Of a stretch of DNA of 64,000 bases, positions 31,644 to 59,856 are shown one piece after another. Made by a program: the position numbers and the translations under genes. How positions within the stretch are numbered: position 1 is the first letter of the stretch; every line of letters starts with the position of its first letter. The stretch is from a virus: positions 1 through 64,000 of IMG/VR virus record IMGVR_UViG_3300032293_001631. One strand, 5' to 3'. A model generated the notes under the pieces. That model worked only from the letters and a program-made list of their open reading frames with translations. It ran no database searches and was not told the origin of the DNA.

Positions 31644-32753
31644 ATGAAAAGCAAAAATTTTAGTTGTTTCGAGTACGAAGTTACTGAAAGAGAAAGATTA
31701 CAATCAATGTATGACGGAACATTTCCTGAGGATGTTAGAAATATCTCAGGAAAAGATATACAAAATAATACCTCAGAGAGGATTGTTATTACGTCTGTAG
31801 ACGACGAAAAAGGTGTTGCCTTAGGTGAAACATCTTTTGGACAAACTATCATAATAGACACAAAGAAAGAGGAGAAAAACATGAGGAAGCTAGGATATCC
31901 ATCTATGGAGATATCTAGTGGACAGGTACTCGATGTTGTGATCCATAAAGATTCTGGAGGATCGTTCAACGGATCGGTTTCTGCCGGATACGAAAAAGCA
32001 CTTAAGAAGGAGCTACATAGATCTATCAAGGACGAGGATTGCGCATTTAAAGTTAGAGTGAAGAATGTTTGTAACGGAGGATTCATGGTGGATCTTTCTG
32101 GAATAGAATGTTTCCTACCTGGTAGCTTAGCAGCTGCAAATAGAATAATGAACTTCGCTGATTATGTAGGCAAAGAATTAAACGTTATGGTTGAGGTCTA
32201 TGACCAGAAAAGAGATATCTTCGTAGTTTCATTTAAAAAATACCTAAGGAAGATCATCGACAGAGAGGTTCAAAATCTATCGTTCTCTAGCAAGTATGAA
32301 GGGGTCGTTACTGGAGCTTCTAACGGAGGAGTTTTTGTTGAATGGGACGAGATCTATACAGGAATAATTCCTATGGACGACTCAAACAGAGAAACTCTTT
32401 CTTCTTATAGTGCTGGTGATGTTGTAGAATTTTATATCTTAGATATAAAGAATCCACAAAGAATATCCTTGTCTGTTACTCAGCCTAGCGAGAAAATGAA
32501 AAATATCCAAGAAATGAAGGATACTTCGTCTGAAGTTTTAGGGGAAAATACCGATTTGAAAATATATAAAGGAGAGATTACTAAAATTAAAACCTTCGGT
32601 GTTTTTGTTAAAATGGAAAACGGATTAACTGGACTTATCGAAAAAGAAAGATTAGTAAACTCTATTAAAGAATATGAGGTTGGAAAATCGGTTGATTTTT
32701 CTATCTTGAGTGTAGATAGTTCTACTCTCAAAATACAATTAATAGAGAAATAA
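31644..32753 (+). CDS. Triple S1-domain RNA-binding protein
   Basis: A 369-residue protein with three S1-type OB folds at about 132-200 (FKVRVKNVCNGGFMVDLSGI), 216-282 (YEGVVTGASNGGVFVEWDEI) and 307-369 (YKGEITKIKTFGVFVKMENG). Each has the GxV......GG(F/V) (M/F)V....  G pattern. S1 domains bind single-stranded RNA and occur in ribosomal protein S1. A free-standing S1 array in a phage late region is unusual. It may help translation of the leader-poor phage mRNAs, or regulate them, which is inferred. The N-terminal ~120 residues may hold a degenerate fourth domain. Confidence 0.8.
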   Translation: MKSKNFSCFEYEVTERERLQSMYDGTFPEDVRNISGKDIQNNTSERIVITSVDDEKGVALGETSFGQTIIIDTKKEEKNMRKLGYPSMEISSGQVLDVVIHKDSGGSFNGSVSAGYEKALKKELHRSIKDEDCAFKVRVKNVCNGGFMVDLSGIECFLPGSLAAANRIMNFADYVGKELNVMVEVYDQKRDIFVVSFKKYLRKIIDREVQNLSFSSKYEGVVTGASNGGVFVEWDEIYTGIIPMDDSNRETLSSYSAGDVVEFYILDIKNPQRISLSVTQPSEKMKNIQEMKDTSSEVLGENTDLKIYKGEITKIKTFGVFVKMENGLTGLIEKERLVNSIKEYEVGKSVDFSILSVDSSTLKIQLIEK

Positions 32754-35022: not shown

Positions 35023-35394
35023 ATGGCAAGATTTTCTGAAATTTATCCAAGGAATCCTGATGATCCAAATTACAAGGAGGGTCTTTTACATACCGATGAT
35101 GAGGTAGAAATCCTTATTGGTATGATTAAGAATTGTATGCTTTCTAGACCTGGTGAGGTTTTAGGAGATCCTTATTTTGGTATAGATCTAGAAGGGCTTA
35201 TATTTGATCTTGGTGTAGACCAGAACACTTTAACTAGAGCTATAGATCTTCATCTCATGACGTATGTACCTATAGCTTATTCCCTTTTTAATGTTGAATT
35301 CAAAATCGGATTTTTTCAGGGTGATACTAGAGATGCTTGCGTTATCGATTTTGCAATAAAGGGTAACCCTATATTAGGAATTAAAATATTATAA
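35023..35394 (+). CDS. Baseplate wedge protein gp25-like
   Basis: A 123-residue protein, near the family's usual ~130. Blocks: DDEVEILIGMIKNCMLSRPGE with the conserved R-P-G-E (SRPGEVLGDPYFGIDL), then LIFDLGVDQNTLTRA and ACVIDFAIKG. RPGE followed by DP.FG is the diagnostic motif of gp25/W-type proteins, which connect wedge and tail sheath and carry the lysozyme-like sheath-initiator fold. It precedes gp6 by 1 nt, the same order as in contractile tails (gp25-gp6). Confidence 0.88.
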   Translation: MARFSEIYPRNPDDPNYKEGLLHTDDEVEILIGMIKNCMLSRPGEVLGDPYFGIDLEGLIFDLGVDQNTLTRAIDLHLMTYVPIAYSLFNVEFKIGFFQGDTRDACVIDFAIKGNPILGIKIL

Positions 35395-35395
35395 A

Positions 35396-37093
35396 ATGGA
35401 TTTATTATCAAAAAATCGGGCAAAGATATCTGACTTATTAACACAGACTTTTGAGTTAATACAGGCAAGATATGGAATGTCTAATCAGCTATTTACCGTA
35501 GCTTCGGTGTGGGGACAAATAATATTTGTTTTAGATAACCTTTCCCAATTTATCTTATTCTTCATTGAGGATTCAATAACTGAATTAAACATAAACACAG
35601 CTACCAGAGAATCGTCTATATATGGATTGGCAGCTTTAACTGGGCACAATCCAACTAGAGCAATATCAGCTAAAGGAGAGGTTATTATAAAATGGAACGG
35701 TAAAGGATTTGAAGATATTGGAGGAAGCGCGGTTCTTATTCCTAAAAACTCCGAGATCAAATGTGTAAATAATGGTAAAACATATCTGCTTAAATTTCCA
35801 CAAGAATACACAAGACTAAATCTAGATAGCACATCAAATTTAGCATGTTCTGTAGTAGAAGGAACGCTAAATGTAAATCAATATACCGGGAATGGTGGGA
35901 AACTCCAAAGCTATAATATCTCTTCAAGAGGAACTTCGAGTATAGAAAACTTTGAAGTTTATGTTAAAGTTAACGGTGTTGAATGGAAACAATACGATTC
36001 TCTCTATGATATTCCTAGGAACGGATTAGGGTACATAGTAAAAAGTTCCATAATATCTGGTATAGATATATTTTTTGGAACGGGTGACTTTGGGTTACCT
36101 CCATCGTCTGGATCTATAATAGAAGTTACCTACCTAGAATCTGCTGGTGCTTCTGGTAATATAGTTGTAGACGACTCTGCACAGGTTATATTTAGATTTG
36201 ATTCTGAGGGAACAGATCTTTTTGGCAATACAGTAACTCTTGCAGATGTTCTTCAAATTTCTTGTACTATTGCTCCACAACTTGGAGCTGGACAGGAGCC
36301 AGTAGATCTAACAAGACTAATAGCTCCTAAGACATCAAGAAGTTTTGTTTTAGCAAATCCTACTAACTACATAACTTTCTTTGAAAAGTTTGGGCAATTT
36401 TCCATAATAGAAGCCTTTACAACTTTTGACGATCAGTACATAGATGACGATAATATTATTTACTTGATACTTGTACCAGATATACAATTGACTTTAAAAA
36501 GCAACGAAACGTATTTTGATATACCGGTTTCCAGATTTAAATTAACTCAACCACAAAGAGATAGAATAAATCAATTATTAGATGAGAGCGGACAGAAAAT
36601 AGTTACCACTGAGGTAAGAATATTAGATCCTGTCATTAAAAAATATGTTGTTAACATCTCAATAAGTATATTCGAGGGGAATGATCCTGATACTGTAAAG
36701 TCACAGATAGTAAATACAATGAGCGATTACTTTTTGAATATCAGAAGAAGAGATAAGATCCCGAGATCGGATTTAATCGCTGCGGTAGAAGAAATAGAAG
36801 GGGTGGATTCGGTTTCACTTTATTTTGTTGGTGAAGAAAACGAAGCTGCTAAGGCACAAAATCCAAATTCACCAGAGATTGGCTTTGATGAATTTGGTGA
36901 TATAGTTATGAGTAAGGACGAGATAGTTATTATATCCGGAGGATGGGAAGATAGAAACGGGATCTTTTACGATCTTGGAGCTGGTATGAATACCCTGTCA
37001 TCTATAAATATAGATATTAGATCTATTGTTCCTTTCACTTATAACTCGAGAGTTAATAATATATTAAAGAGCTCGTTAAAAACAGGAAACTAA
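35396..37093 (+). CDS. Baseplate wedge protein gp6-like (baseplate J family)
   Basis: A 565-residue protein, T4 gp6 being 660. The N-terminus has KISDLLTQTFELIQARYG and INTATRESSIYGLAALTGHN, a conserved R...S...LA...G motif of baseplate J-like proteins. GGSAVLIPKNSEIKCVNNGK follows, and a beta-rich C-terminal half (KKYVVNISISIFEGNDP) with IRRRDKIPRSDLIAAVEEIEGVDSVSLYF, the conserved end region. It forms the wedge ring around the hub. The next gene overlaps no sequence but follows after 1 nt, as do the surrounding wedge genes. Confidence 0.85.
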   Translation: MDLLSKNRAKISDLLTQTFELIQARYGMSNQLFTVASVWGQIIFVLDNLSQFILFFIEDSITELNINTATRESSIYGLAALTGHNPTRAISAKGEVIIKWNGKGFEDIGGSAVLIPKNSEIKCVNNGKTYLLKFPQEYTRLNLDSTSNLACSVVEGTLNVNQYTGNGGKLQSYNISSRGTSSIENFEVYVKVNGVEWKQYDSLYDIPRNGLGYIVKSSIISGIDIFFGTGDFGLPPSSGSIIEVTYLESAGASGNIVVDDSAQVIFRFDSEGTDLFGNTVTLADVLQISCTIAPQLGAGQEPVDLTRLIAPKTSRSFVLANPTNYITFFEKFGQFSIIEAFTTFDDQYIDDDNIIYLILVPDIQLTLKSNETYFDIPVSRFKLTQPQRDRINQLLDESGQKIVTTEVRILDPVIKKYVVNISISIFEGNDPDTVKSQIVNTMSDYFLNIRRRDKIPRSDLIAAVEEIEGVDSVSLYFVGEENEAAKAQNPNSPEIGFDEFGDIVMSKDEIVIISGGWEDRNGIFYDLGAGMNTLSSINIDIRSIVPFTYNSRVNNILKSSLKTGN

Positions 37094-37341: not shown

Positions 37342-40300
37342 ATGGCTTTTGAAAATCTTTTATTCTTTAATAAAAAAGGGGACCAATATAATTTTAAATG
37401 GAATGGTGAATATTGGGAGGGATCGGTTCTATTTGAGGTAGTATCCGAAAAACTTTTTGAGATTGAACACATATTCGTAATTGAAAAATTTCTAAACCCA
37501 TCTTCTGAAATAAAATATGGATTTCCACACTCTTATGGAGTTAGCCCGGGTGCTCCTGTTTGGAGAACTAGATGGGTTTCCAATTACGATGGAAGGACCA
37601 ACGTAGAATCCATAATTTATACATACGAGCTTGGTGTTGATGGAAATCTGGATGCTCCTATACTCGTTAAGTCTAATAATATTGAGTTTTATCCTGAGGT
37701 TGTAAGTGGCGATACTATTTCATCTCCTGGTGGAATAGTTATCAGTAACGATATCAATCCATCTTCAATGCAAATCAATATTGCATTAAACTCTAACACT
37801 GAAGGGATATATGACAGAACTTTAATATTAGAAGACTATACTGATCCTAATAATCCGGTAACTATAATGTCTATTAACTTCCACGGTGAAGTAGAAGGCG
37901 AAGATAGTAGATTGTCTGTTATTCTAGGTAACTTTGGTAGATCATTTAATCCGGATGACGCTTTTATAGTAAGAGAAAGTGATATAAAGGAAGAATTTCC
38001 AGATTATGAGATAATAAACAAGAAAAGAAAGGAGTTACTTCTCACTGGGGAAAGTATATTCCCGTATTTAGGTTCATATAAGTCTCTTTTCAATGCAATA
38101 AAATTCTTTGGATACTATGATCTTAGAGTAAAAGAATATTGGCTAAATATAAAAAAAGATGATGCTGATACATTAACACCTTTACAGCAAAATCAAAAGA
38201 TTTTAGATCAGCTATCACAGCCAAACTTAGAGGGCCAAAGTAAATTGGAACTGATAAGTAGTTTAATAAAAGACGAGAACGAGGGAAAATACAAGCAAGT
38301 AGAGATATACGGTAAAAAGAAGGACGGTACATTCGGACTAAAAAAACAGCTGGATAAAATATTCCCTTCTAAATCTTATAAGAAAACCGCTTTATTTGGT
38401 CTTTTCTATGATATTAACAGAGTAGTAGAGGATCAAGATGAGGATCAATACGGATACCCAATAGTTGAAGATAGCTTCTTGTTTAGTCCAGAGGAAGTAC
38501 TTATAAAGCTATTCGGACTAAAAGAAAGATTAAAAAGAGATTACCTTCCATTAAATGCCAGGATTATTGATATAACCGGAGAGGGTGTTTATTTTAATAT
38601 TTATAAAACAAGAGGCTGGACAGATTCTGTAGACATAAGTGAAATTAAAGGCGGTATAGAGGTTGACTTTACTGTTTTCCCTAATGAAGGTTACATAGAG
38701 GATTTAAGACCTTTTTATACAAAGCCAAATCAATCGGGCCTTTTATATCCTGCAGTAAATGGAACTGAGGCGGGCATAAGTCTTTATGGTAATACTGTAG
38801 ATCCTTATTCGTTCTTCCAGAAATATCCTAAATCAGCAATACCAGCATTAGAAACTGCAGTAAGAAGCTTTTATGATGATGTTAAATCTGGAGAAATGCC
38901 TAAGTTTCTTGGAGATGGGGATTACGATCCGCCAGGGTATAAACTATTTTCTGATAGCAGTGACTATGTTTTTCCTGCTGGGTGTCCTATCATAATAACG
39001 AATAATACCTTTGATCTCTCTTGGGAAGAAATAAGTGGTAGCTGGACATCTTTCGATACAACAATAACCCTAACTGATTTAGATATAGCTAGTTACACTA
39101 GTACAGCTTCACAAAATCCAGGAGGACCTTTACAAAATGCCTATAGTACTGACACATTTACATTGCCTGATACTTTTCCTAGCAATACAACAATTAATAT
39201 AGGAACAGGAAAGGATTGGTTTTCTACCACATCTCCAGAGGTTATATTTGTAAGAGTGGAATCAGTGGACTCTCCTGGTAATTTAGTTTTAGGATACTGT
39301 AGTTCTGGAGATTATAATACACTAACCGGAGATCTTTATATTGAATTCGTATACACAAGGGGATCTGGAGAATATTCAAATTGGAAGGTCAGTCCGACGA
39401 ATATTAAATTCAGTTCTTATGTTTTTGATTACTATCAGAATTTTGTACACTCTAACGGATTTTATTCTTGGGACAGAATACCATATTTGGATTTCTATGA
39501 AATAGAATGGACAATATACAAGGATGATGACGATAAGCCTTATTATTTCCAGATAACTGGTGATTTACCGGGATTGGATACTCTCGTACATTTTTTACCA
39601 TATGACGGGGAGTACAATGTTAAATGTAGAGTTTGGGACACATTAAATTCTATATCTCTGGGTATAAAAAGAGGGATAGTAAAAGTAGATAAGAGGGGAA
39701 TAGAACTAAATACGATTACTAGATTTAGAGAATCCGAAATCTATAACTGGGACAATATGCCTCTTAAATGGGATAGCTATTTTTCTCAATGGATTTTCCC
39801 AGTAGAGAACACAAGTAACTTATTAGATATTTCACAATTTATACAGAACTATCCTGAATACTCTAATAACTTTAATGAGGGTCAACAATGCGAGGTGTTA
39901 ACTAAATTACCTGAAGTTAAAGCCACCGCAACTTTCGATATAGGTGCGGATGAAATAGGTATATCTAGTATTGTTAGCTCTTATAACGGAAGTGGATATG
40001 ATTTAGCTACTGTTACTACTTTAACTCCTCATGGGTATTCATCAGGATCAACTGTTTGGATATACGATGCAGCCGGCGCTCCTTATGGACAATACCCTAT
40101 AACAGTTACTGGAAGCAACACATTTGAGATCCCTGACATAATTATTACTCCTATAAGCGGTGGGAATGTTTATGGATCGGGTACAATAAATATAATAATT
40201 GATTCCGTTCAGGTAGCGTCTTGTAATTTTCAGGGTGATTTAAATTCAACGACATCTTTACTGTATAGTATCATAAATGCTTCTCCAATAAATCCAAAGT

Positions 40301-43300
40301 ATAAAGTTGTATCCTTAGTTGATTCAGTTATTCCTGGATACAAGACTTTTACTATACAAGCGCCAAACAACTCCGGTTCTTTATGGAACGGTAAGTCAGT
40401 TATAATACAGGTAACCGGATCAATACTAGCATCTCCTATATCTACTAGCTTCTCTGGTGGTGTTAACGAAACAGAATCTTACGTTCCTTATGACTTCGTT
40501 ACTATCCCTAAAAAGGAAATGAAGTACTGGGGTACTAAAAGGTTATCATGGGAAACTTTTGAAGATTTTGCTTTTGAAAAAGCTTATGCTCATACATGGG
40601 ATATGTACGACTACCATAATGATTGGCTAGGTGGGTTCGATTTATATTCACTACAATATGGTGATAGGATTAGAGTTACTAGTGATTCTTCTGGAATAAT
40701 ATTAACTGAAACAGATTCGCCGAATAATAATTATTTAGATTTAGAGGAAGCAGCAGACCAATTAAACAATTCTGGTGATGTAAACATTGATAGGTTTGAT
40801 TACACTGTAAGAGGATTCTCAGCTCTTCCTAATAATTTCTATATAAATAGTAATCCAATCTCTCCTGATCTTAGTACAAATCCAGGACCTAAGAATATAA
40901 CTTCTAAATTTTTCAAGATTCCAACATATTCACCTGTTCTTTTCGAGCCAACAGGATTAGCTTGGGATGCTGATGGAGATATATGGGTAACTGGGGAGGA
41001 TGTTATAAAATTTGATGGATTAAATTACACCACTTATGACTCTACTAACAGTGTAATGCCTGGTGTATCTATTTTAACAAATTGTATAAAAATTGATAGG
41101 AACGATGTTAAATGGATCGGTGTAGAAAACAGTTTAACACCTCTGGTTAAAATAGACGATAGAGATCCTTCTAACAGCTTAGCTTATTCCGTAAGTGATT
41201 TCGTAGACAATGGAGGAAACCCAGTTAGTCCTATAACTGCTTCAAGTATAAATGCGATAGAAATAAATCCACAGAGCGGAGATATATTTGCAGCATTTAC
41301 TTGTAACTCATCGCCTTCTTTTGACGGTCTTTTATTTTATGATTCTCATGCTAATTCTTGGGGACTTTATACAACAGCCAATTCTGATATTCCTTCAGAT
41401 AATATTAGGGATCTTAGATTAGAATACTATGGAATAAATAAATGGTATTTGTGGATAGCCACAGACAATGGACTATCAAGATTTAACGGCGTTAATTTTA
41501 AAAATTATAACGATGGAAATTCGGGACTACCTGATAATGATGTTTATTCGATTGAGCTTGATAAATTAGATCACAAATGGATAGGAACTGGATCTTCATT
41601 AGTTTATTGGGATAATACAAGATGGGCAGTATGGAACAATGGAACTAATCCAGAGATATCAACTGGAAAGTTCGGTAATATCGTAGAGACTGGTAATGCT
41701 AACATATGGTTTACAATAGATCAGGGATCTTCTCCAGGAAATGCGGAGCTATATTTCTTTGATGGATATTTCTTTACTAAAGTTTTATACAGGAACGATG
41801 GAATTTCTTTAATAAATCCTTGTAATGTACTACACGGTAAAACACTTCTTTCTGCTCCATGGAAAACAATTAAAAATGGAGAAACTACATATCCTAGAAA
41901 TTTGATATTCCTGACAGAGGACGGCGAGATAGGAAAGCTTGACTATATTATACCTCATGTACATGCAAGTTCTAAAATATCTGATGTACAGGGGTGGGAT
42001 TTCGTTTATCATGAATCTTCTACACCTCTTCCTTCCATAGAGTATATTTATAACAGCGCTATAGGCAACTCACAGTTAGGATTTAGCTTTGTAGTAGGAC
42101 CTTTTAATGACAATATAACACTAAACTCTGATTACACTAGACCAGTGATGCCTAATGTCGATAGATATTCATGGTATAAGCCCGTTTGGCAGCGTTATAA
42201 CATCGATCGTCTGAAAGACCAGTTTCCATCTTTGAATCTGGATCATGTCTTCTTATACGCGCCCTTACGAGATATTATAGAGGGTAAAGCAACGAAAGAA
42301 CCTTACTGGAAAAATTCACAAATAGAAAGGATAGCTCAGAAAAAATCTAGGGATCTTTTCGAGAATTTTGAATGGGTTATAACTCTAGGAAATAGCGACC
42401 CAGATCAGGGGGTTAAGGTCACAGTAGATAATGAAGGGGATATTATTGCTATCGGAGATTTCAATGGTACTATATTCATGGGAGAGGTAAACAATATAGG
42501 TACTCAAGACGTTTATTTAACAACATTAGACCAGGGTGTTTATATAGCAAAATATAACAAAGGCGGTGTATTACAATGGGCAAGATCAATTGACTCAACA
42601 TCTCCACAAGGTCCTATATTCGGAAGATCTGTTGTAACAGATGAAGGCGGGAACATTTACGTAGTTTGTGATAACAATCTAACAGGATTTATAGAAATAA
42701 ACAAATACAATTCTGGAGGAGATCTTCTAAATATAATAAACATACCAGTTACACCTTCCCAATTTTTGGGTGATATTAAAGTAGACAAATATGAAAATGT
42801 CTATATATGTGGCGGATTTGAAGGAACACTTAATCTTGGTATTTATACATTAACATCATCTGGACAAGATTCTGGATTCGTTGCTAAACTAGATTCCACT
42901 TTAAATTTTGTTTGGGCTAAGCAATTAACAGATGGAACTTATTCCAAAGCTAATGAAATAGCTATATTAAAAGAGGAATATCTTTATTTAACGGGTGTTT
43001 TTGAAACTGAGATAAATCTAGATCCTATCCAGCTATCTGGTGTTGGTAATCCGGATATGTTTGTAGCTAAAATTTACACGGGAGATGGAACATGTCTATG
43101 GGCAGATAGCTTTGCTTATAACGCATCTACATCATTTACAGATACTTCAATTTGTGTAGATCCTAAAGGACATGTTTTAATAACTGGATCATTCCAAGGT
43201 ACTATAGAAATAGAGGATAAACAGCTTTCATCATTCCCTGGAGTAAATGATATATTCCTGATAAAACTTCTGTCTACTGGAAAATTGGTTTGGATGAAGA

Positions 43301-44121
43301 TGTGTGGAGGATCTTCAGGAGATACTGCTCACGATGTTGAAAGTGACTCAGAGGAGAATGTTTATATTACTGGATCCTACACATCTGGAGCATACTTCTC
43401 TCCGGTAGAGCTTGAATCTAGAGGAGGAACTGACATATACTTAACTAAATTCAATAAGGACGGATTACTTGTTGATATAGTTACTGCTGGAGGAATAAAC
43501 AATGACTCTGGGGCTGATTTAGTACTCGATAAGGAAGAAAATATTTACATAACTGGATATTTTGACGGAGAAGCTGAATTCTCACCTTATGTGGTTCTTT
43601 CTCCTCCTGGAGGTAGCTTAGATGCTTTCCTTGGTAAAATACCTAAACAAAGATTCCAGTCTGGGTTAAAAATAGGAGGAGTTCAATCTTGGCTAGGATC
43701 TCACTCTTGGTCTTGGAGGGAAGAGAAATTTTATCAAGAAGAGTTTGAAATACCTTTGGCTACTACTATATTTATAAATCCAATAGATTCTTTAATCCCT
43801 GGTAAGAAAGATCATATATGGACTCTTACAGATACAGAAAATGGAAATGTTATAGTCAAGATAAGAAAAACACCTTATTTCATATGGACTTTCCTAGAAC
43901 CAGGATTCTACACTATATCCTGTGAGCTACAAGATGCCAATGGAAACATATATCAAACAGAACACAAGGGCAAAATAAGGGTAATAGATCATAAATCTCC
44001 TTTTGCTGGTGACCTAACACCTGAAGTAGTTAATCCTAGCGATTATTTAATCAGATCAATATACTACGACAGAAAGGATTTAGGATTCCCTCCTTATTCA
44101 AGATTTGATATAGGATCTTAA
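37342..44121 (+). CDS. Gp7-like baseplate wedge protein with two beta-propeller blocks
   Basis: A 2259-residue protein; T4 gp7 has 1032. The N-terminal ~430 residues hold FLNPSSEIKYGFPHSYG, ESIFPYLGSYKSLFNAIKFFGYY and ERLKRDYLPLNARIIDITGEG, tail-protein-I-like. A beta-sandwich or PKD-like segment lies at about 715-800. About 1200-1540 has propeller repeats of the two-component-regulator type (WIATDNGLSRFNGVNFKNY, DHKWIGTGSSLVYWDN). About 1670-2100 has SBBP-like propeller repeats (ENVYITGSYTSGAYFSP). A further PKD-like end (FLEPGFYTISCELQD) follows. Position after gp25-gp6 supports the gp7 role; the propellers may mediate binding. Confidence 0.65.
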   Translation: MAFENLLFFNKKGDQYNFKWNGEYWEGSVLFEVVSEKLFEIEHIFVIEKFLNPSSEIKYGFPHSYGVSPGAPVWRTRWVSNYDGRTNVESIIYTYELGVDGNLDAPILVKSNNIEFYPEVVSGDTISSPGGIVISNDINPSSMQINIALNSNTEGIYDRTLILEDYTDPNNPVTIMSINFHGEVEGEDSRLSVILGNFGRSFNPDDAFIVRESDIKEEFPDYEIINKKRKELLLTGESIFPYLGSYKSLFNAIKFFGYYDLRVKEYWLNIKKDDADTLTPLQQNQKILDQLSQPNLEGQSKLELISSLIKDENEGKYKQVEIYGKKKDGTFGLKKQLDKIFPSKSYKKTALFGLFYDINRVVEDQDEDQYGYPIVEDSFLFSPEEVLIKLFGLKERLKRDYLPLNARIIDITGEGVYFNIYKTRGWTDSVDISEIKGGIEVDFTVFPNEGYIEDLRPFYTKPNQSGLLYPAVNGTEAGISLYGNTVDPYSFFQKYPKSAIPALETAVRSFYDDVKSGEMPKFLGDGDYDPPGYKLFSDSSDYVFPAGCPIIITNNTFDLSWEEISGSWTSFDTTITLTDLDIASYTSTASQNPGGPLQNAYSTDTFTLPDTFPSNTTINIGTGKDWFSTTSPEVIFVRVESVDSPGNLVLGYCSSGDYNTLTGDLYIEFVYTRGSGEYSNWKVSPTNIKFSSYVFDYYQNFVHSNGFYSWDRIPYLDFYEIEWTIYKDDDDKPYYFQITGDLPGLDTLVHFLPYDGEYNVKCRVWDTLNSISLGIKRGIVKVDKRGIELNTITRFRESEIYNWDNMPLKWDSYFSQWIFPVENTSNLLDISQFIQNYPEYSNNFNEGQQCEVLTKLPEVKATATFDIGADEIGISSIVSSYNGSGYDLATVTTLTPHGYSSGSTVWIYDAAGAPYGQYPITVTGSNTFEIPDIIITPISGGNVYGSGTINIIIDSVQVASCNFQGDLNSTTSLLYSIINASPINPKYKVVSLVDSVIPGYKTFTIQAPNNSGSLWNGKSVIIQVTGSILASPISTSFSGGVNETESYVPYDFVTIPKKEMKYWGTKRLSWETFEDFAFEKAYAHTWDMYDYHNDWLGGFDLYSLQYGDRIRVTSDSSGIILTETDSPNNNYLDLEEAADQLNNSGDVNIDRFDYTVRGFSALPNNFYINSNPISPDLSTNPGPKNITSKFFKIPTYSPVLFEPTGLAWDADGDIWVTGEDVIKFDGLNYTTYDSTNSVMPGVSILTNCIKIDRNDVKWIGVENSLTPLVKIDDRDPSNSLAYSVSDFVDNGGNPVSPITASSINAIEINPQSGDIFAAFTCNSSPSFDGLLFYDSHANSWGLYTTANSDIPSDNIRDLRLEYYGINKWYLWIATDNGLSRFNGVNFKNYNDGNSGLPDNDVYSIELDKLDHKWIGTGSSLVYWDNTRWAVWNNGTNPEISTGKFGNIVETGNANIWFTIDQGSSPGNAELYFFDGYFFTKVLYRNDGISLINPCNVLHGKTLLSAPWKTIKNGETTYPRNLIFLTEDGEIGKLDYIIPHVHASSKISDVQGWDFVYHESSTPLPSIEYIYNSAIGNSQLGFSFVVGPFNDNITLNSDYTRPVMPNVDRYSWYKPVWQRYNIDRLKDQFPSLNLDHVFLYAPLRDIIEGKATKEPYWKNSQIERIAQKKSRDLFENFEWVITLGNSDPDQGVKVTVDNEGDIIAIGDFNGTIFMGEVNNIGTQDVYLTTLDQGVYIAKYNKGGVLQWARSIDSTSPQGPIFGRSVVTDEGGNIYVVCDNNLTGFIEINKYNSGGDLLNIINIPVTPSQFLGDIKVDKYENVYICGGFEGTLNLGIYTLTSSGQDSGFVAKLDSTLNFVWAKQLTDGTYSKANEIAILKEEYLYLTGVFETEINLDPIQLSGVGNPDMFVAKIYTGDGTCLWADSFAYNASTSFTDTSICVDPKGHVLITGSFQGTIEIEDKQLSSFPGVNDIFLIKLLSTGKLVWMKMCGGSSGDTAHDVESDSEENVYITGSYTSGAYFSPVELESRGGTDIYLTKFNKDGLLVDIVTAGGINNDSGADLVLDKEENIYITGYFDGEAEFSPYVVLSPPGGSLDAFLGKIPKQRFQSGLKIGGVQSWLGSHSWSWREEKFYQEEFEIPLATTIFINPIDSLIPGKKDHIWTLTDTENGNVIVKIRKTPYFIWTFLEPGFYTISCELQDANGNIYQTEHKGKIRVIDHKSPFAGDLTPEVVNPSDYLIRSIYYDRKDLGFPPYSRFDIGS

Positions 44122-44789
44122 GTAGTATATTCTCTATAAACATCAAGAATTTCAGGAACTATAGGATGCCTGTGGTTTTTCTTTAATGTAATAACCTTAA
44201 CACCAGGGACTCTTGCTGCAAGTGTATTCATAAAATCTAGACCTGATTCTTTCTTGTTTTTTAAATCGATCTGAGATGTGTCCCCACATATCATTATTTT
44301 AGATCCTATACCAAGTCTACCAAGAACCATTTCCATTTGACTCATAGTTACGTTTTGAGCCTCATCTACTATTACACAAGAATTAACCAATGTTCTACCT
44401 CTCATGAATGGGAAGGGAAGAATTTCGATGATACCCTCACTGAGTAATTTTTCTATTTTGGTTTTATCGTAGACCATTTCTAGATTAGCATAAATAGGGG
44501 CTAACCAAGGATCCATTTTCTCCTTTAAATCTCCAGGAAGAAATCCGATATCTTCTTTTGCAACAGTTGGTCTAGTGATAACTAGCTTTTCTATTTCCCT
44601 GTTGAATAACATATCCAAAGCTATCTGGACCGCTAATAAAGTTTTACCCGAACCTGCTGCTCCTTTTAAAACGTTAACTGGGTTTTCCAGTATGATGGCT
44701 TTAGCATCTTTTTGCTCCTCGTTTAAATTGATTTTAAATTTAATGGGATTTTTTGGTTTTCTCTTTTGAGTCCAATTGCTTCCTGTCAT
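44118..44789 (-). CDS. phoH: PhoH-like ATPase
   Basis: A 223-residue protein. Walker A GAAGSGKT (43-50), ITRPTVAKEDIGFLPGDLKEK (71-91), Walker B VIVDEAQN (140-147), a sensor GRLGIGSKIMICGDTSQID and a final KKNHRHPIVPEILD. These are PhoH family signatures. PhoH proteins are P-loop NTPases linked to RNA metabolism and common in large phages. It overlaps the 3' end of the gp7-like gene by 4 bp and is the only minus-strand gene between 3 kb and the window end. Confidence 0.92.
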   Translation of the reverse strand: MTGSNWTQKRKPKNPIKFKINLNEEQKDAKAIILENPVNVLKGAAGSGKTLLAVQIALDMLFNREIEKLVITRPTVAKEDIGFLPGDLKEKMDPWLAPIYANLEMVYDKTKIEKLLSEGIIEILPFPFMRGRTLVNSCVIVDEAQNVTMSQMEMVLGRLGIGSKIMICGDTSQIDLKNKKESGLDFMNTLAARVPGVKVITLKKNHRHPIVPEILDVYREYTT

Positions 44790-48020: not shown

Positions 48021-51000
48021 ATGTCGAATACTAAAAATTCATTCTCATCATTAATAGCACAGTTTCTTAGACTCCAAAAGAACTCTTTGGAGATAATAAA
48101 CAAATTAAATGATGTAACTACATCTTCTAAAGATTCTGTGGAGATAGAATTTCTGATGGATGATAATACATCGGAGAATATACAGGTTCCTTCCTTTGGT
48201 TACTTAAAAACCGAAATTAATAGACTAGATCAGAACATCAAGGCTCTTTCTGGATTAGATGATAATAAAGCTAATGTTAGAAATCCAGATGGTACAGTAG
48301 CAAAAATATATCAGTCCAGAACATTAACTGATCCATCATCTCCTACTAGTTTACAGATACCTTCTACTTTCCAAGCTAGAAATAACTGGTTTTTTGAATC
48401 TTTTTTAAATCCACTTCTCTATATAGAAATCGATGTTGAAAATCAAATACCAGAAAATTCAGAGAGCGTTTATGTAAAAAGAGTTATAGCTAATACACAA
48501 TCTGATGTACAGAAGCAGTACTTTGATAATAACTTAAAAGGACGTAACGATTTAACAGATTCTGACTTTATAGCATCTTTAGAGAGCCAAGGCATACAAT
48601 ACTTTATAGACGAGCAAATAAACAGTTTAGACTTAAGAACAGTAAGATTTACTGGATCTTTTGGAGTTCTTAGAATATTTGACGAGGAAGTACAAACTAC
48701 AGTTGATGGGGTTACTACTACCACTACAGTTAGAAAGTATAAGCTTAACGGAATTAGATACACTGATAACTTATCAGATACCGAAAATTCAAGAACATTA
48801 GCAAAAGGTGATTTACTTATAACTAGTGGAGGAACTAAATACGAGATAAGCTCAATAGACGTAAGTGATCAAACTGTTGTACTAAAAAGACTATTTGGAT
48901 TCGAACCTATTAAGATAGGTGATGCCTCATTAACAATCTATTCAAATGTTTTATCAAATAGACAAGTAGAAATAAATGTTGGGTTTGACGAGAGACAGGG
49001 CGTATTTATAAAATCTATAGATGGGGACTTTAATGTCGCAGCTAGTAAATATAGCCCAGGAATTTGCTTCTGGTCTAATGAATTACAGATAAGCACTTCA
49101 GATGGAGTAAAAACATTGGAGGAATTTTATAATTCACAGGTTTCGGATTTCGGTAAAATATTTATAGCTGCTGCTAAAGAAAATACCATACCTGCTGTTT
49201 ATGGGCAATCTCCATCTGCTCCGGTAGTTTCCACAGATAACTTTAAAGTAGTTAAGGTAAATTCTCAGGTAACTGATTCCAAAGAGAACAATTCTTTTAA
49301 AGATAAGATAAAGATTAAAACCACTTTAAAGAATGAAGTAGAATCAATAGATAGAGCTATAGATCAGACAAGAAAACAACTTTCTGAATTAACTACGACA
49401 TCTAGTTCAAAAACACCTAATGCGGAGTTTAAAAAATTAAATGATAAGATATTAACTCTTACTAAAGATAAGGGTTCTAAAACAGATCTTTTATCTACTA
49501 CGATAACGGAGATAAACAACTTAATAATAGCAGTTCCGGAATTAACGGAAGCTCCTAAATACAGAGTTAGGGGATTCTGGCCAATACCTGAACCTATATC
49601 TGATCCTAAAACAGGAGAACAAAATATAGTTCAGTTTAATGTAAGATATAGATATCTTTCTCTAACCGGGAATCCTAATGGCGTTGAACAGATAGATTAC
49701 ATCGATAATAATGGAGTTCAAAAGACTGGACAATTTACAAACTGGACTCAGTTTAAAACTGATGTAAGAAAGAAAGTATATGATATTAATACTGGAACTT
49801 ATATTTGGCAAATAGAGGACGTTAGCGACGCTAATACAGTAAATATAAATCAATTAGATATTCCTATAACCAAGGGAGAAAAGGTAGAGATACAAGTTCA
49901 ATCAATATCTGAGGCTGGCTGGCCTACTAACCCTTTAACTTCCGATTGGTCAACGTCAGCTATTGTCGATTTTCCACCGGATTTAGTTGTACAAATAGAT
50001 AACACTTCTTTTGTTTCACAGAACAACACAGATAATGCAGTAGTTAAAATTCAGGAAGATCTACAAGCAAAAGGATTAGATCAGCATTTATCTACTCAAT
50101 TTACTTCTGGTGATAAGTTTTATGCACATAATTCTTCTGTTATAGCATCTGGATTCTTTGATTCAACTGGTAAAGCTTTAGATCTTTTCCAGAAGCTTAC
50201 ACAAATTGATAATGAATTACAGTCGCTAAGAGCTTTGATAGCAAAAGCAAAAGGAACTTTAGGTGTTTATATAAGAAATGGAAGCACTTCAAACAAAGTA
50301 AATCCTGGAAGTACGGTAAACCTTTTTGCTGGATATTATGATCAATTAATAGATCTTACAAATCCTAATAACAAAGGTAAGATTGCATCTGTTGTTTATT
50401 ATGTAGAATTAAGAAACGAAGCAGCAACTCCTTTAGAATTATCATCTCTTATTCCAGGAGGACAAGGAGTAAAAGCTCCTAATACTATATCAAGTCAGAC
50501 CGATTACAATAATAATAGAAAATATGGGGAAACCCCTATTCAGCTTTCCGGAATAACAGACGCAGATGTTAATGTTTCTTCCCCTGGAGCATTTATTCAA
50601 GCTTCTGGGTATCAGAGTGGAAATGCTTATTCTCAATTCATATATCCTAGATATAAATCTTCTGGATTGGATGAGAATCTATATTTTACGCCTCCGACAT
50701 CATTAGCTTGGAATATAAATGACGGATCCCTAGTAGGTACTAGCCAACTTCCTATAGATAACAATGGGGTATTAATACCTTTCAGACCAGATACAACTTC
50801 AGTTACTGGAGCGGGTTCCAATGCTAATATTTGGGCAGGGACTTATACTTCTTTTGCTCCGGACGGAAATGGTAACTTAAATGAATTTTGTATCCACGTT
50901 TCTCACCCAGATATAAGCTCGGGAGTTCCTATTTTCGTAAATCTTGTGAATCCTTCAGTTTCACCATCTGGTCCTATGCAATATCCTGCATTTAGACATG

Positions 51001-51515
51001 CCCTAGGATTTGAAACCGATACAAATACTACTACTTCAGTTCCTGGATTTCAAACTGCTCCATATCAGCAGTTGGAATATTATCCAGCACTATCTAGTTC
51101 TAGTTTCGGTGTTAATAACAGCGCTTATCCTAACAAATTAGGATTTGTTGAGTCGGATGAATTCTTATGTGGTAAGTTCTCTTGTGGATCATATCTTTTC
51201 TTATCACCAACTAATCATACTGCAGTTCAAATAGAAGGCTCAACACAACTTGCCAAGAAGACGCTAGATTTTGGACAGGAGAATGCTATAACTGTTCCTC
51301 TTATATTCCAAATGAGAGCTCAAGATAAATTAGGATTTGTTGGAGGATGGAGATCTGCTGGTAATCTTAAGAATATTACCTACACTAAGAAAATTGGAAT
51401 AGATATACAGGTGAAGAACGAGGATCTTTTCTCTTTCGATATTCTTGTAACGGGAAGTTATACTAAGACATCTCTAGTTTCACCAGCTTATTCACAAAGT
51501 AAGAAAACTATTTAA
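48021..51515 (+). CDS. Large virion structural protein with FN3-like domain
   Basis: A 1164-residue protein. The N-terminal ~120 residues are helical (LIAQFLRLQKNSLEIINKLN). A coiled coil lies at about 430-480 (DRAIDQTRKQLSELTTTSSS). Residues ~510-650 look like a fibronectin type III-like fold (APKYRVRGFWPIPEPIS, QVQSISEAGWPTNPLTSDWS). The C-terminal half is beta-rich with a distal FDILVTGSYTKTS. FN3-like domains occur on many phage tail proteins. A fibre or receptor-contact role is plausible; the target is unknown. Confidence 0.55.
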   Translation: MSNTKNSFSSLIAQFLRLQKNSLEIINKLNDVTTSSKDSVEIEFLMDDNTSENIQVPSFGYLKTEINRLDQNIKALSGLDDNKANVRNPDGTVAKIYQSRTLTDPSSPTSLQIPSTFQARNNWFFESFLNPLLYIEIDVENQIPENSESVYVKRVIANTQSDVQKQYFDNNLKGRNDLTDSDFIASLESQGIQYFIDEQINSLDLRTVRFTGSFGVLRIFDEEVQTTVDGVTTTTTVRKYKLNGIRYTDNLSDTENSRTLAKGDLLITSGGTKYEISSIDVSDQTVVLKRLFGFEPIKIGDASLTIYSNVLSNRQVEINVGFDERQGVFIKSIDGDFNVAASKYSPGICFWSNELQISTSDGVKTLEEFYNSQVSDFGKIFIAAAKENTIPAVYGQSPSAPVVSTDNFKVVKVNSQVTDSKENNSFKDKIKIKTTLKNEVESIDRAIDQTRKQLSELTTTSSSKTPNAEFKKLNDKILTLTKDKGSKTDLLSTTITEINNLIIAVPELTEAPKYRVRGFWPIPEPISDPKTGEQNIVQFNVRYRYLSLTGNPNGVEQIDYIDNNGVQKTGQFTNWTQFKTDVRKKVYDINTGTYIWQIEDVSDANTVNINQLDIPITKGEKVEIQVQSISEAGWPTNPLTSDWSTSAIVDFPPDLVVQIDNTSFVSQNNTDNAVVKIQEDLQAKGLDQHLSTQFTSGDKFYAHNSSVIASGFFDSTGKALDLFQKLTQIDNELQSLRALIAKAKGTLGVYIRNGSTSNKVNPGSTVNLFAGYYDQLIDLTNPNNKGKIASVVYYVELRNEAATPLELSSLIPGGQGVKAPNTISSQTDYNNNRKYGETPIQLSGITDADVNVSSPGAFIQASGYQSGNAYSQFIYPRYKSSGLDENLYFTPPTSLAWNINDGSLVGTSQLPIDNNGVLIPFRPDTTSVTGAGSNANIWAGTYTSFAPDGNGNLNEFCIHVSHPDISSGVPIFVNLVNPSVSPSGPMQYPAFRHALGFETDTNTTTSVPGFQTAPYQQLEYYPALSSSSFGVNNSAYPNKLGFVESDEFLCGKFSCGSYLFLSPTNHTAVQIEGSTQLAKKTLDFGQENAITVPLIFQMRAQDKLGFVGGWRSAGNLKNITYTKKIGIDIQVKNEDLFSFDILVTGSYTKTSLVSPAYSQSKKTI

Positions 51516-51518
51516 TAA

Positions 51519-54500
51519 GTGGCAAGAAAAATAATTAAGCAGGATTCATCTTTTGGAGTACTTAGAGCTAATCCAAGAATTTCGGGAAATGTAAAAATAA
51601 CCGTAGATTCTAAAAGCGGGATATGGCTAAATTCTATTGACTCTAACCAAGAGATGTCAAATAGCTATTATAAAGGTTTTCGTATATCTCCGGAAACTTC
51701 TTATGATAAAGATCTTTATAGATTTTTTAATGAGGGTAAGACTCCTTCTCAATTTGTATTCGGAATGTTGGGAGAAGGAGATCCAGTTCAGAACCAGATA
51801 AACAATCTTTCAAGCAGCTATAATTTTTTTTATAGCTCTGGTGTTTCTCCGCTTATATCTGACAAATACGACGAGGACTTTTCTTATTTAGCACCTCTTT
51901 GGCTAGGTAAGGATGTTCCTGACTATTTTGTTATATTTAAGGTTAACGATCCTATAGATTATCCTTATCAAATTCCAGTAACTTCTTTAGAGATTGGTAA
52001 ATCTTATAAGGTACTACAAGACTCATCAGTAAATACACAGTCTTCTTCTTATTTACCATTCCAGATTTCCAGCGGATCACAAGTTTATAGCGACGGAAAT
52101 ATTTTTACAGCAACATCGTATACGTTTAATGTTTTACAGGGACAAGGTACTGTGGTATTAATGGATCCTTTGTATAATATTAACCTAGTAGAAAATACTG
52201 AACAGCATTTCTACGATAAGATCCTACCAAAATCTACTGCAATTGCAACTTTTGATTTAACTGAAAGTTCTAATATTGGTAAGTATTTAAGAAAGATAAA
52301 AACAACTCCTGGTTACACAGATAGTTTAATAGATGTTAGATTTGAGGAGAACCAATTAACAACATTCAATGGTGTTAATTATTCAGTGGGTATATTTGAT
52401 AAAAAGGGGGATTTCCTCATAGATTATTATAAAAATCCGGATACACAAATAGGGTTTGAAGATTTTATAACTAATGGTTTTAGAAACAACGGGATTCTAA
52501 GCTATAAGCTTTTAAATCTAGAGTTCCTTTTTAATGATAACGATTCAGAAAACTATACAATTAACAGGTATTTTGGGCTTTATGTAAATGCTGCAGATAT
52601 TTCTAATTTTAAATTAGATGGTGATGCTTTATATAAAAGTCAAGGAACTTCGGGAAATACTCCTATACCAGAGAAGAATAATAAAGGATATTATTATCAG
52701 GATGTTTCTTATTTTCAGTATAATGATAATGGCGTTAGATTGTATCTTGAGCCAACAAAGATATCAGGAATAATACCTAATTCGGATGATGTCAATATAG
52801 TAGAAGAAACGAAGCTTTTCTGGGTTAAGGATAAAAATGGTAGCTTCCATTCTTTAAAAAGAGATGAGAACTATTTAAGTTCTTCTCCTCCACCAGCAAC
52901 GTCAAGCTACGGAATACTAGGATATGATAACGAGATTGTAATACAGGATACTTCCATAGATATTTCTTTATTTACTGGTAAGGATAAAACTACTAAAAAA
53001 CAGTATCCTGCAGTAACTACTGGAGATAAAGGTAGAGCTTATAGTGTTATTAGAATAGCCAATGAAATAAATAATCTTGCCGAGAATTGTTTTATATTCT
53101 ATAATCCTTTGGGATATTACGGAGTACCTGGTTCTAAATATGATATTATAAAAGCATCTGATCTTTCTCTTTCTGTTGATGAGTGGGGTCCAGGAAGTTT
53201 TTATGCACAAGATAATGCTTATTATTATCATCCATTTGGAACAAATGAAGATATAGCTAAAGCTCTAACTGGTATATTTAATAGCTTTAATTATAATTCT
53301 TTCGAAGCTTTCCAATCTGGAGATGAGGTAGTCATAAGAACAAATGCAACTGGTACTGCTGAGAATAGTAAATACTATTTGGACTTTTTCCAGAATTTCA
53401 CAACATCTCAGAGAATGCCTGATTCCAGAAGAGGAATTATATTCATAAATGAGAAAGATGTATGTGATATAAATCAGAGACAATCTTTTATAGGAGGGTC
53501 TAATTATTCTAACACTAGAGTAAAAGTAAAAATAGAGGATGCTAATAAAATTATAGTAGGTGAGACTTTTATAGAGACTATAAAAAACACATCGACTGAT
53601 TCTTTCAGCAATCTTCCAGAGTATTCAAATATATCTTCCTCAGTAGTTACTGGAAAATATAGATTCATAGATCAATACGCATTTGATCAGAACGGTGATA
53701 TAGTAGGATTAAAGGATTTTGAGACTCATGCAACTATAGAAATTTCTAACTTTACAGAATCTATAGCTTTTGGATCTTCTAAAACAATCTCAGCATTTAA
53801 TACTTATGACGTACCTTTAGGAATATTTTCATTCTATGGTCTTAGAGAGATAGACATGGATTTCTGGTACAGTGAATATGGGTACACACCTACGGAGGAA
53901 TATTATAAGTATTTAGATACCCAACCAGAGGGTAAAACTAAGATAGTATCGGGTAAAACTTATTTCGTATCATCAGGTGCGGAAATTGAGTACGGGGGAA
54001 ATACCATAAATGGTCCGGATTTCTTTGAAGGATTTCCAGGGGATGAGGAATATATGTTAGTTGCTGGATCTACTTCTGCTGAATCAAATGTATTCCCTAC
54101 TCTTTCATCAAGAGGTAATGTAACAGGGGGTATCACTACTAGCAATTTTGATTACCTGTTTTACCCGGATTTAGATGCTTTCCCGGGATTCTATGGAATA
54201 CAATCCTTACAATTTATAGACAACGAGGTAGGTATAGACACTAAATTTAAGCAGCTTAATTTTGGTAAATTATATTCCGAGTATGATTACACGCAGGATA
54301 ATTATAATCCGGACTATGCTTTAAATAGTAGAGTTAGTCCATATATTACAAAATGGGTTTATAGAGGAGGTACAGATGTTAGGGGAAATGGATACAGACT
54401 TAATGCAAATTTAGCTTTTAATCCACTTAACTTTTCCCCTAGTTTTTTCAAAATAAATCAGGATCCGCAGTACTTTACTCACGAGTGGTATCATCTACAG

Positions 54501-57162: not shown

Positions 57163-59856
57163 ATGCCACAGATTAATATATTAAACATACTACAAGGAGA
57201 CAGTCAATCTAATATAGTTGATAAAATCAATTATAATTTTGATCAGATCCTCAGTGCTGGGGGTGGACCTCAAGGAGCTCAAGGATTAATAGGTCCAACT
57301 GGACCAATAGGACCTCAAGGTCCTCAGGGGGTTCAAGGAGCTCAAGGACCTTCAGGAACTAAATGGTTTGTACAAGACACATCACCAGCTTCTGGTGGTA
57401 TAACAGGATCTAATCCATTTGGATTCCCAACTTTAGGAGATTATTGGTTAGATCCAGATTCTGCTAATCAGGACATTTATGTATTCGGAACAACCGGATG
57501 GCTCAATAGTGGATATGGATTGGCTTCTGGGCAACTATTTCAAAAGGTTACTCCTATAGATTTAATTGGGGGAGCTACTGGACAAGCAATACTTATTGCA
57601 GGATCTACTGCAGGGGATCAGACTTTGGTTCTTTCTGATTCAACTATAAATGATTATACTCCAGGGGGAAGCGCTATACAGAATCTAAATTTCGAAGATG
57701 CTAAGTTAAAAATAGCTACAAAAGATTCTAGAACTAAATTGATAAGTTTTGGTAGATCCACATTTGATGTGAGTCCATCCGGAACAGGATCTTCTTCTAG
57801 TTCATCTAATCCTTATTTTGCTTGGGATCTTTCAGTTAATCCATCTGGAGCATCAGGTGCTGGTCCTAATTTTTATAATCTGTCTTTTACCAACCCTAAA
57901 GGATCGATCAGTATTAATTCTAATGGAGCTACTGCAGAATCTGGAATTAATATGTTAAGTAGTAGCGAGATAAGTGCACAGTCTACCTCAGATAACATAG
58001 TTCTAAAGACATCTTCAGTAAATAAAGGTACTTTCATAGATGCTAGCTCTAATGGGGGCTTTTTAGAATTGTCAAATAACTCTTCGACGCCTTCAAACCA
58101 ATCTTTTGCACCTCTATTTGCTAATCCAACTGGAGTAGGTATAGGTTTAGGCACTGGACAATTTAAATCAACGGGGGATGATTCTAGAAAATTGGCTGTT
58201 TTAGGAAACACCAGTATTTCTAAAACACAAACGTTACACGCTTCGGATTTTTATATTGGTGACCCTTCTGCAAACAATTACAATAAAGGTATTTTATTTG
58301 TTGAAGGTCATGTTGGTTTTGGATCAACCGGTTCAACAGGGGATTTAATATCGGGTATCTCCACAACAGGAATGGCGGAATCTCAAAATAGATTCCCTCA
58401 ATTATGGGTAACTTCTCCTAATTACGGCCCAGGTGTACAGGTAAGAACGAGAGGAGCTTCCACATATTCTCCTAGAACAGTGATAGGAGATGGTGTTTTT
58501 GATTATGCTCTAGCTGGTGGAGCTACTGCTTTAGCAGGAACTGGTCCTGATATAACACAGGAGTTCTATTCTAATGGATATACATTCCAAGCAGGTCCTT
58601 TAATAAGTTATCAGCATAAACTATCTACTCCAACAAATACAACTGGAGACGCACCAGTTTTTTCGATTACAACGTACACCAACTCGGGTACTTATGGTAG
58701 TAATACAATAAATAGAACTACTATACAGACTAAGAATTCTAACAAGGCTATAGAATTAATGGCTAATGGTACAGGAGGTGAGAACCAGATTAGAATAGGT
58801 GTATCTGAGGAAAGCTTAGTAACCGTCTGGTCAGGAACTGCTGGAGCTCCTAAATTGGGAGGAGTAGCAATAGGGGTTTCTGGATCAAATTCTTCATTCG
58901 GAGCTCCTCTGCAAGGTAATTTAACAGGATCTAGATTTACTAATAATAATTTAGGAACACATAGCTTGGTTGTAACAGGAGTACAAACTATAGGAACTAA
59001 TAATCCTGTTTCTTTAATGAATCCTGGAGCATCTGGAGCTAGTGCATCATTCGGCGGGAATTCGATGCTGAAGATATCCAGAAATTTATATAGCACGACA
59101 ACACCTTTCGGGGTTAAGGGAATAAGCGCAGCTGGAACTTATCCTTTCAACTATACAAACGGGTTAGAGATAACGTCTTTTATTCCTACATCTCCTACGA
59201 CAGTCAAAGGGTCAAATAGATCAGTTGCAATATCCGTTGCAAGCTCTGCCACTATAAGAAACAGCGATGGCTCATCACCGACTTCTCCAGCTACTGGATT
59301 CTACGTTAGTGATACTGGTGAGAATATAGCAATAGGTAGATACATTGATTCTACTGCTGCAATAGGGGTATCAGGAGCTGCAGGTGATCATGCTATAAAA
59401 GCACTTGGTGATGTTGGCATAACTGGTAATTTTAGCGTCGTAGGTAACATATCAGCAACTGGTAATACTATCCTTAATGGTAATACGAATACAACAGGAG
59501 GATCACTAACCATAGGGAACGGAGGTACACCAATATTAAAAACTATTGCAGGATCAGTTACCTGTCCAATTAATGGAACACCGCCTACTATTAACTACGG
59601 AAGCGGATTTACTGCTACTATGGTTGCTTCTGGATTAAATACCGCTAGAGTTAGAATAACATTCAATGTGCCATTTTCTAATGCTAACTTAGTTGCAACT
59701 AGTAATATATTCCTAGGTACTGCTGGACCAACATTACAGTACACAGGATCTGCTGGAAATTACGGAGCTCCTACTACTACCCATTGTGAATTTATTTTTA
59801 GAAATATAGGATCAGGAACAGCAACCCTTAATTTTTTAATTCAACAAGTTGCATAA
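57163..59856 (+). CDS. Collagen-like tail fibre protein
   Basis: An 897-residue protein. Residues 1-32 (LNILQGDSQSNIVDKINYNF) resemble the N-terminus of the 44901 gene. Residues 33-66 hold a G-x-y collagen-like array (GPTGPIGPQGPQGVQGAQG). WFVQDTSPASGGIT and a beta-helical shaft follow, and the C-terminal part is Ser/Thr/Gly-rich with VYGSTGNFS-type turns. The final ~130 residues (FNVPFSNANLVATSNIFLG, CEFIFRNIGSGTATLNFLIQ) form a globular tip. A receptor-binding tail fibre is the usual reading of this architecture. Confidence 0.7.
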   Translation: MPQINILNILQGDSQSNIVDKINYNFDQILSAGGGPQGAQGLIGPTGPIGPQGPQGVQGAQGPSGTKWFVQDTSPASGGITGSNPFGFPTLGDYWLDPDSANQDIYVFGTTGWLNSGYGLASGQLFQKVTPIDLIGGATGQAILIAGSTAGDQTLVLSDSTINDYTPGGSAIQNLNFEDAKLKIATKDSRTKLISFGRSTFDVSPSGTGSSSSSSNPYFAWDLSVNPSGASGAGPNFYNLSFTNPKGSISINSNGATAESGINMLSSSEISAQSTSDNIVLKTSSVNKGTFIDASSNGGFLELSNNSSTPSNQSFAPLFANPTGVGIGLGTGQFKSTGDDSRKLAVLGNTSISKTQTLHASDFYIGDPSANNYNKGILFVEGHVGFGSTGSTGDLISGISTTGMAESQNRFPQLWVTSPNYGPGVQVRTRGASTYSPRTVIGDGVFDYALAGGATALAGTGPDITQEFYSNGYTFQAGPLISYQHKLSTPTNTTGDAPVFSITTYTNSGTYGSNTINRTTIQTKNSNKAIELMANGTGGENQIRIGVSEESLVTVWSGTAGAPKLGGVAIGVSGSNSSFGAPLQGNLTGSRFTNNNLGTHSLVVTGVQTIGTNNPVSLMNPGASGASASFGGNSMLKISRNLYSTTTPFGVKGISAAGTYPFNYTNGLEITSFIPTSPTTVKGSNRSVAISVASSATIRNSDGSSPTSPATGFYVSDTGENIAIGRYIDSTAAIGVSGAAGDHAIKALGDVGITGNFSVVGNISATGNTILNGNTNTTGGSLTIGNGGTPILKTIAGSVTCPINGTPPTINYGSGFTATMVASGLNTARVRITFNVPFSNANLVATSNIFLGTAGPTLQYTGSAGNYGAPTTTHCEFIFRNIGSGTATLNFLIQQVA
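57261..57360. repeat. Collagen-like Gly-x-y tract
   Basis: Nine-base units such as ggaccacaa / ggtcctcag encode GPQGPQGVQGAQG and similar triplets within the fibre gene. The tract has about ten consecutive Gly-x-y triplets. Confidence 0.8.

What the first reader, a model, noticed from the sequence alone, without database searches (positions are those of the whole stretch)
37342..44121. Wedge protein fused to two kinds of beta-propeller
The gp7-like N-terminal part is followed by regulator-type propeller repeats (about residues 1200-1540) and SBBP-like repeats (about 1670-2100), both typical of Bacteroidota proteins, plus PKD-like segments. I am not sure whether T4 gp7 propellers, which exist, are homologous. 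Acquisition from the host could give this baseplate a sugar- or polymer-binding surface.
Basis: partly seen in the sequence, partly recalled or inferred. Interest (0 to 1): 0.7.

Follow-up and report, generated by a model that had tools for sequence, protein, structure and literature searches.

The report
Phage wedge protein with inserted propellers
In a group of large freshwater phages that probably infect Bacteroidota, a baseplate protein carries two disc-shaped beta-propeller domains, each inserted cleanly at its own site and resembling bacterial surface proteins, while related phages lack them or have a different propeller-like domain at the same site, which makes this protein a place where phages appear to gain new binding surfaces.

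Summary
ORF 37342-44121 (2259 aa) contains two seven-bladed beta-propellers of different families. Residues ~1187-1537 are regulator-type (profile match to Bacteroides hybrid sensors, E 9e-25). Residues ~1677-2101 are SBBP-type (CylK, E 6e-25; Pfam SBBP 4e-7). Both fold confidently in AlphaFold2 and occur in 35 other full-length viral contigs at 54-87% identity plus one near-identical.

Twelve distant homologs, and a closer ~1000-aa family, lack both. Empty-site relatives show two separate insertions: ~438 aa at a point with no spacer, and ~448 aa at a second site ~60 residues of ancestral sequence away. One relative carries a third, probable propeller (Kelch-like) exactly at the first site, absent from relatives at 51-63% identity.

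The regulator-type propeller is strongly Bacteroidota-associated. SBBP has its best matches there but its origin is unresolved. The best cellular matches are T9SS-type secreted proteins.

"gp7-like" rests on synteny (beside gp6), not sequence: T4 gp7 does not match, and P2 gpI aligns only at a motif, not above noise. Host-surface or fibre binding is inferred, not shown. New variant of a known kind: propellers at phage baseplates have precedents (phiKZ gp131, phi11 RBP).

The parts
37342..44121 (+). Wedge protein, 2259 aa, single ORF
   Evidence: PHROG 28177 (unknown function) E 3e-23
37774..38631 (+). Conserved core, residues 145-430, the only part shared by all 12 distant homologs (motif KRKELL..I.PYIGSYKAL.NAI.YFGY.DL..KEYW)
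39442..39702 (+). First PKD-like domain, residues ~701-787
   Evidence: shared with LR756500, MaF61 and L281-L290; PKD-like by sequence reading only, no Pfam match
40465..40809 (+). Ancestral module before site 1, residues 1042-1156
   Evidence: empty-site family profile E 1e-5
40810..42153 (+). Insertion at site 1 (residues 1157-1604) in place of ~42 residues in empty-site relatives
40900..41952 (+). Regulator-type seven-bladed beta-propeller, residues ~1187-1537
42154..42336 (+). Ancestral segment between the two insertions, residues 1605-1665
   Evidence: profile E 9e-6
42337..43650 (+). Insertion at site 2 (residues 1666-2103), no spacer in empty-site relatives
42370..43644 (+). SBBP-type seven-bladed beta-propeller, residues ~1677-2101
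43672..43995 (+). C-terminal PKD-like domain, residues 2111-2218, ancestral C-terminus
35396..37093 (+). gp6/Baseplate_J wedge gene directly upstream
   Evidence: phrog_219 E 2e-27
35023..35394 (+). Small gene in the gp25 position, conserved next to gp6 in relatives
   Evidence: no family match; synteny

Best explanation
The gene encodes a gp7-like baseplate wedge protein of a large Bacteroidota phage. Its ancestral ~1000-aa scaffold took up two autonomous seven-bladed beta-propellers at two separate loop sites, a regulator-type one at site 1 and an SBBP-type one at site 2, before the present clade diversified. The scaffold (N-terminus, core, C-terminal PKD-like domain) assembles the wedge with gp6; the propellers project from it as extra domains, two per copy, so about 12 per virion if the copy number is that of T4 gp7. 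They most likely serve as binding surfaces toward the host envelope (glycan or surface protein) or toward the phage's own fibres. Shown: the propellers, their absence in relatives, the two insertion sites, the conserved gene order, the Bacteroidota association of the regulator-type propeller. Inferred: gain rather than loss, surface exposure, copy number, the host phylum, ligand binding.
For: Fold and family. Absence: 12 distant homologs keep the core (E 1e-26 to 1e-97) and have no propeller match; the ~1000-aa family (L281-L284, L287, L289, L290) lacks both. Clean sites: the empty-site profile aligns to 1042-1156, 1605-1665 and 2104-2218 with model positions 785/828 and 890/888 at the junctions. 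Reuse: L286 has a 340-aa propeller-like insert at model position 787/788, absent in L287, L289 and L290. Baseplate context: gp6 upstream; the gp6-wedge neighbourhood is kept in L038, LR756500, Lak-A1, MA9V-2, PTm1 and pT24. Cellular counterparts look like T9SS-type secreted proteins: Reg_prop or SBBP plus Por_Secre_tail, total 342 bits for L245. In prop1, BC loops are least conserved (0.62) and AB loops most conserved among loops (0.82), as expected of one outward, faster-evolving side. [quoted passage not shown]
Against: No sequence homology to T4 gp7 and none above decoys to P2 gpI. The AF2 model of the N-half is poor and has no fold match, so wedge identity rests on gene order. No ligand, virion or host data. 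Both propellers are about as conserved as the rest (0.76-0.78 against 0.75-0.88 elsewhere), with no sign of the hypervariability often seen in receptor-binding domains. No relative with a cultured host carries the propellers.
Confidence: 0.6

Rival explanations
1. The propellers are structural spacers or docking platforms for tail fibres or other baseplate parts and never touch the host.
For: Even conservation and fixed position across 36 contigs. In T4, gp9 and gp10 bind gp7 (PMC3004832), and the gp7-like part of AlgoCIS contacts fibres (PMC8894135). Large fibre-like genes follow downstream (51519-57119).
Against: Relatives with the same core and a homologous downstream gene (48021-51515) do without them. 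The cellular counterparts look like secreted surface proteins.
Confidence: 0.3
2. The propellers are ancestral and were lost in the other lineages.
For: The direction of change is not rooted by an outgroup.
Against: Losses would be needed in Lak, LR7565xx, Tenacibaculum, Chryseobacterium, Flavobacterium and L281-L291 lineages, precisely at both junctions, and L286 shows site 1 filled by a different domain while near relatives are empty.
Confidence: 0.07
3. The propellers have catalytic activity, for example on envelope polysaccharide.
For: The SBBP match CylK is an enzyme, and propeller folds occur in phage endosialidases (PMC4901313).
Against: The CylK match covers generic propeller repeats at ~20% identity; catalytic residues were not mapped.
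Confidence: 0.08
4. The protein is not the gp7 equivalent but another baseplate or tail-tip protein next to gp6.
For: No sequence or fold match to gp7, gpI or any solved wedge protein.
Against: Gene order beside gp6 in six other phages, as for T4 6-7 and P2 J-I; the best hhalign columns with P2 gpI fall on its KR..KGT..A..GY..EWW motif, though not significantly.
Confidence: 0.25

Closest known systems
T4 gp7 / P2 gpI (Tail_P2_I) wedge proteins
   Same: Gene next to gp6/J; large multidomain protein in the T4 case
   Different: No significant sequence match; no significant match of the T4 gp7 family to either propeller profile
Bacteroidota hybrid two-component sensors (BT4663, BT3049, BT4673; Reg_prop, PF07494)
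   Same: Sequence family and fold of propeller 1
   Different: There the propellers form the sensing domain of a signalling protein; here one is inserted in a baseplate protein
SBBP propellers (PF06739), incl. CylK and Bacteroidota T9SS-type proteins
   Same: Sequence family and fold of propeller 2
   Different: Not followed by a secretion signal; inserted in a protein of a phage tail cluster
phiKZ gp131C
   Same: Seven-bladed propeller at the baseplate periphery of a jumbo phage (as described in PMC4901313)
   Different: Not among the 50 best Foldseek PDB matches; different carrier protein
phi11 RBP
   Same: Propeller in a baseplate host-recognition protein with a proposed sugar site (PMC4901313)
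   Different: Five-bladed trimeric RBP of a siphophage
AlgoCIS Alg11/Alg12
   Same: Contractile system of a marine Bacteroidota; added domains on wedge proteins (CBMs on Alg11), gp7-like part named as hotspot (PMC8894135)
   Different: CBMs, not propellers; no sequence relation tested

Membership tests
gp7-like baseplate wedge protein | Gene adjacent to gp6/Baseplate_J | tested here: met
gp7-like baseplate wedge protein | Sequence homology to T4 gp7 | tested here: not met
   hhalign probability ~0.1%
gp7-like baseplate wedge protein | Sequence homology to P2 gpI (Tail_P2_I) | tested here: inconclusive
   aligned at the motif, E 0.1, not above decoys; no Pfam match
gp7-like baseplate wedge protein | Helix-turn-helix core bundle with two gp6 | tested here: inconclusive
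   core modelled with pLDDT below 50
Reg_prop propeller | Reg_prop repeats and seven-bladed fold | tested here: met
   A3 profile vs PDB E 9e-25, fold; the 24-residue Pfam model PF07494 alone does not ring on the window
SBBP propeller | SBBP repeats and propeller fold | tested here: met
Bacteroidota origin of propellers | Nested among Bacteroidota sequences in a tree | tested here: inconclusive
   SBBP tree unresolved; no tree made for Reg_prop, only counts

The most novel reading that the evidence does not exclude
Two loops of this wedge protein are recurrent cassette sites where Bacteroidota phages capture beta-propellers of host surface-protein type, making the wedge itself a receptor-binding protein that changes host interaction by domain insertion rather than by fibre exchange.
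Probability: 0.3. Interest if true: 0.75.

Novelty: new variant of a known kind. Interest (0 to 1): 0.52.

Why it matters
It gives a natural experiment: related wedge proteins with empty sites, two propellers, or one other propeller-like insert. If the inserts bind host surface material, baseplate wedges join fibres as evolvable host-recognition parts in large phages of a major aquatic and gut phylum.

Tried and rejected
T4 gp7 homology and P2 gpI homology: not significant. T4 gp7 family against the propeller profiles: E 0.03-0.5 on seven sequences, treated as noise. Fold search with the N-half: no match at E<=1e-3. SBBP donor tree: unresolved, long branches. One phylum comparison (that of G004) held only 4 genomes, all rich in SBBP, so it only shows that SBBP is not exclusive to Bacteroidota. 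Early alignments against LR756500 alone suggested a single ~950-aa insertion; the closer relatives showed that it is two. Recent acquisition in this phage was rejected: all 36 full-length orthologs have both propellers. Paper searches found no report of this fusion, in an open-access library only.

Full report
What is there. The 2259-codon ORF at 37342-44121 lies in a tail/baseplate cluster of a 95,476-bp virus record. The gene upstream is gp6/Baseplate_J (phrog_219 E 2e-27). The protein matches PHROG 28177 of unknown function. In INPHARED, 29 records match by tblastn: Lak phages, LR7565xx/LR745206 huge phages, and Tenacibaculum, Chryseobacterium and Flavobacterium phages; most match only around residues 145-430. 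The cultured hosts among these are all Flavobacteriales, and Lak phages are assigned to Prevotella, so a Bacteroidota host is likely but inferred.

The propellers. A profile of residues 1190-1570 from 18 orthologs hits the Reg_prop sensors 4a2l and 3v9f at E 9e-25 and 6e-19. A profile of 1650-2120 hits CylK at 6e-25, and Pfam SBBP is hit at 4e-7. AlphaFold2 of residues 1060-2259 gives confident strands at 1187-1537 and 1677-2101, which I read as seven four-stranded blades each (blade count from the DSSP string). Foldseek puts BT3049, BT4663, BT4673 and CylK at E ~1e-19 to 1e-18 and PorZ at 9e-13. The viral library returns giant-virus, Synechococcus-phage and Bacillus phage G proteins, so propellers on viral proteins are not new in themselves.

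Two insertions, not a fused C-terminus. In 36 full-length contigs at 54-99.7% identity both propellers are present and colinear. In 12 distant homologs the core is found in all and the propellers in none. Relatives found with LR756500 and L285 form a ~1000-aa family. Its profile aligns to the window protein in ordered blocks, the last three being 1042-1156, 1605-1665 and 2104-2218 (E 1e-5, 9e-6, 2e-18), with the model running 785 then 828 and 890 then 888 across the gaps. So about 448 residues sit at site 1 in place of ~42, and about 438 at site 2 in place of none. Direction (gain) is by parsimony; no rooted tree was built.

Site 1 was used again. L285/L286 (one contig, 1352 aa) has 340 extra residues exactly at model position 787/788, which L287, L289 and L290 (best-segment identity 63, 61 and 51%) lack. 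The insert matches Kelch_6 at 8e-5, below Pfam's cut-off, designed Pizza propellers at E ~0.01, and has 44-49-residue spacing between most of its similar motifs (self-match reached by 13 of 500 shuffles). It is a probable propeller of another family; it was not modelled.

Where the propellers come from. Regulator-type: 135 of 198 Bacteroidota genomes match at E<=1e-3, 78 at <=1e-9 by my count of the table, best single match 72 bits, against 1 of 195 Verrucomicrobiota at <=1e-9 and 0 of 144 in the phylum of the Bacteriovoracales genome. SBBP: 36 of 198 Bacteroidota, best 154 bits, 8 of 195 Verrucomicrobiota, best 110 bits, and all 4 genomes of a small phylum, best 136 bits; the tree does not resolve where the phage branch attaches. 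The best Bacteroidota counterparts carry Reg_prop or SBBP repeats plus, in most, a Por_Secre_tail match, some below Pfam's cut-off, so they look like T9SS-secreted surface proteins. Host capture is plausible for propeller 1 and open for propeller 2.

What the carrier is. The gp6 neighbour is kept in L038, LR756500, Lak-A1, MA9V-2, PTm1 and pT24, as in T4 (6-7) and P2 (J-I). Sequence tests fail: T4 gp7 family probability ~0.1%; P2 gpI aligns at KR..KGT..A..GY..EWW but at E 0.1 and not above decoys. The core model is too poor to use. I therefore call it gp7-like by position only.

How it may work. T4 gp7 is present in six copies and contacts gp6, gp8, gp9 and gp10 (PMC3004832); the gp7-like part of AlgoCIS is described as a hotspot for re-engineering that contacts fibres (PMC8894135). 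Domains that can be inserted or absent without changing the flanks are most likely exposed. The variable BC loops of propeller 1 (0.62 against 0.82 for AB loops) suggest one outward face. Whether it meets a host glycan, a host protein or a phage fibre is unknown.

Noticed in passing
31644-32753 (+): 369-aa protein with three S1 RNA-binding stretches (Pfam S1 E 3e-21) inside the tail gene cluster.
   Followed up: no
44118-44789 (-): PhoH-like ATPase on the opposite strand directly after the wedge gene.
   Followed up: no
57163-59856 (+): Collagen-like stretch in an 897-aa protein with weak tail-fibre matches.
   Followed up: no
L059 (LR756502) and L064 (LR745206): In ~640-kb phages the wedge homolog has ~1400 residues inserted after the first ~50, and a CBM_5_12 match C-terminal of the core (E 7e-6 and 2e-4): a different decoration of the same scaffold.
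   Followed up: partly
L060, L061, L066 (Lak phages): Homologs of ~1800 aa (read with TAG=Q) with the core at ~320-640 and a long C-terminal extension without Pfam match.
   Followed up: partly
window 39889-40491 (wedge protein residues ~850-1050): Well-modelled beta-rich domain (pLDDT ~85) with no convincing match in the distant homologs; may be a further lineage-specific insert.
   Followed up: partly
L218/G001 and G004, G546-G548: One Verrucomicrobiales genome is rich in regulator-type propellers (57 matches) and a four-genome phylum is full of SBBP repeats.
   Followed up: no
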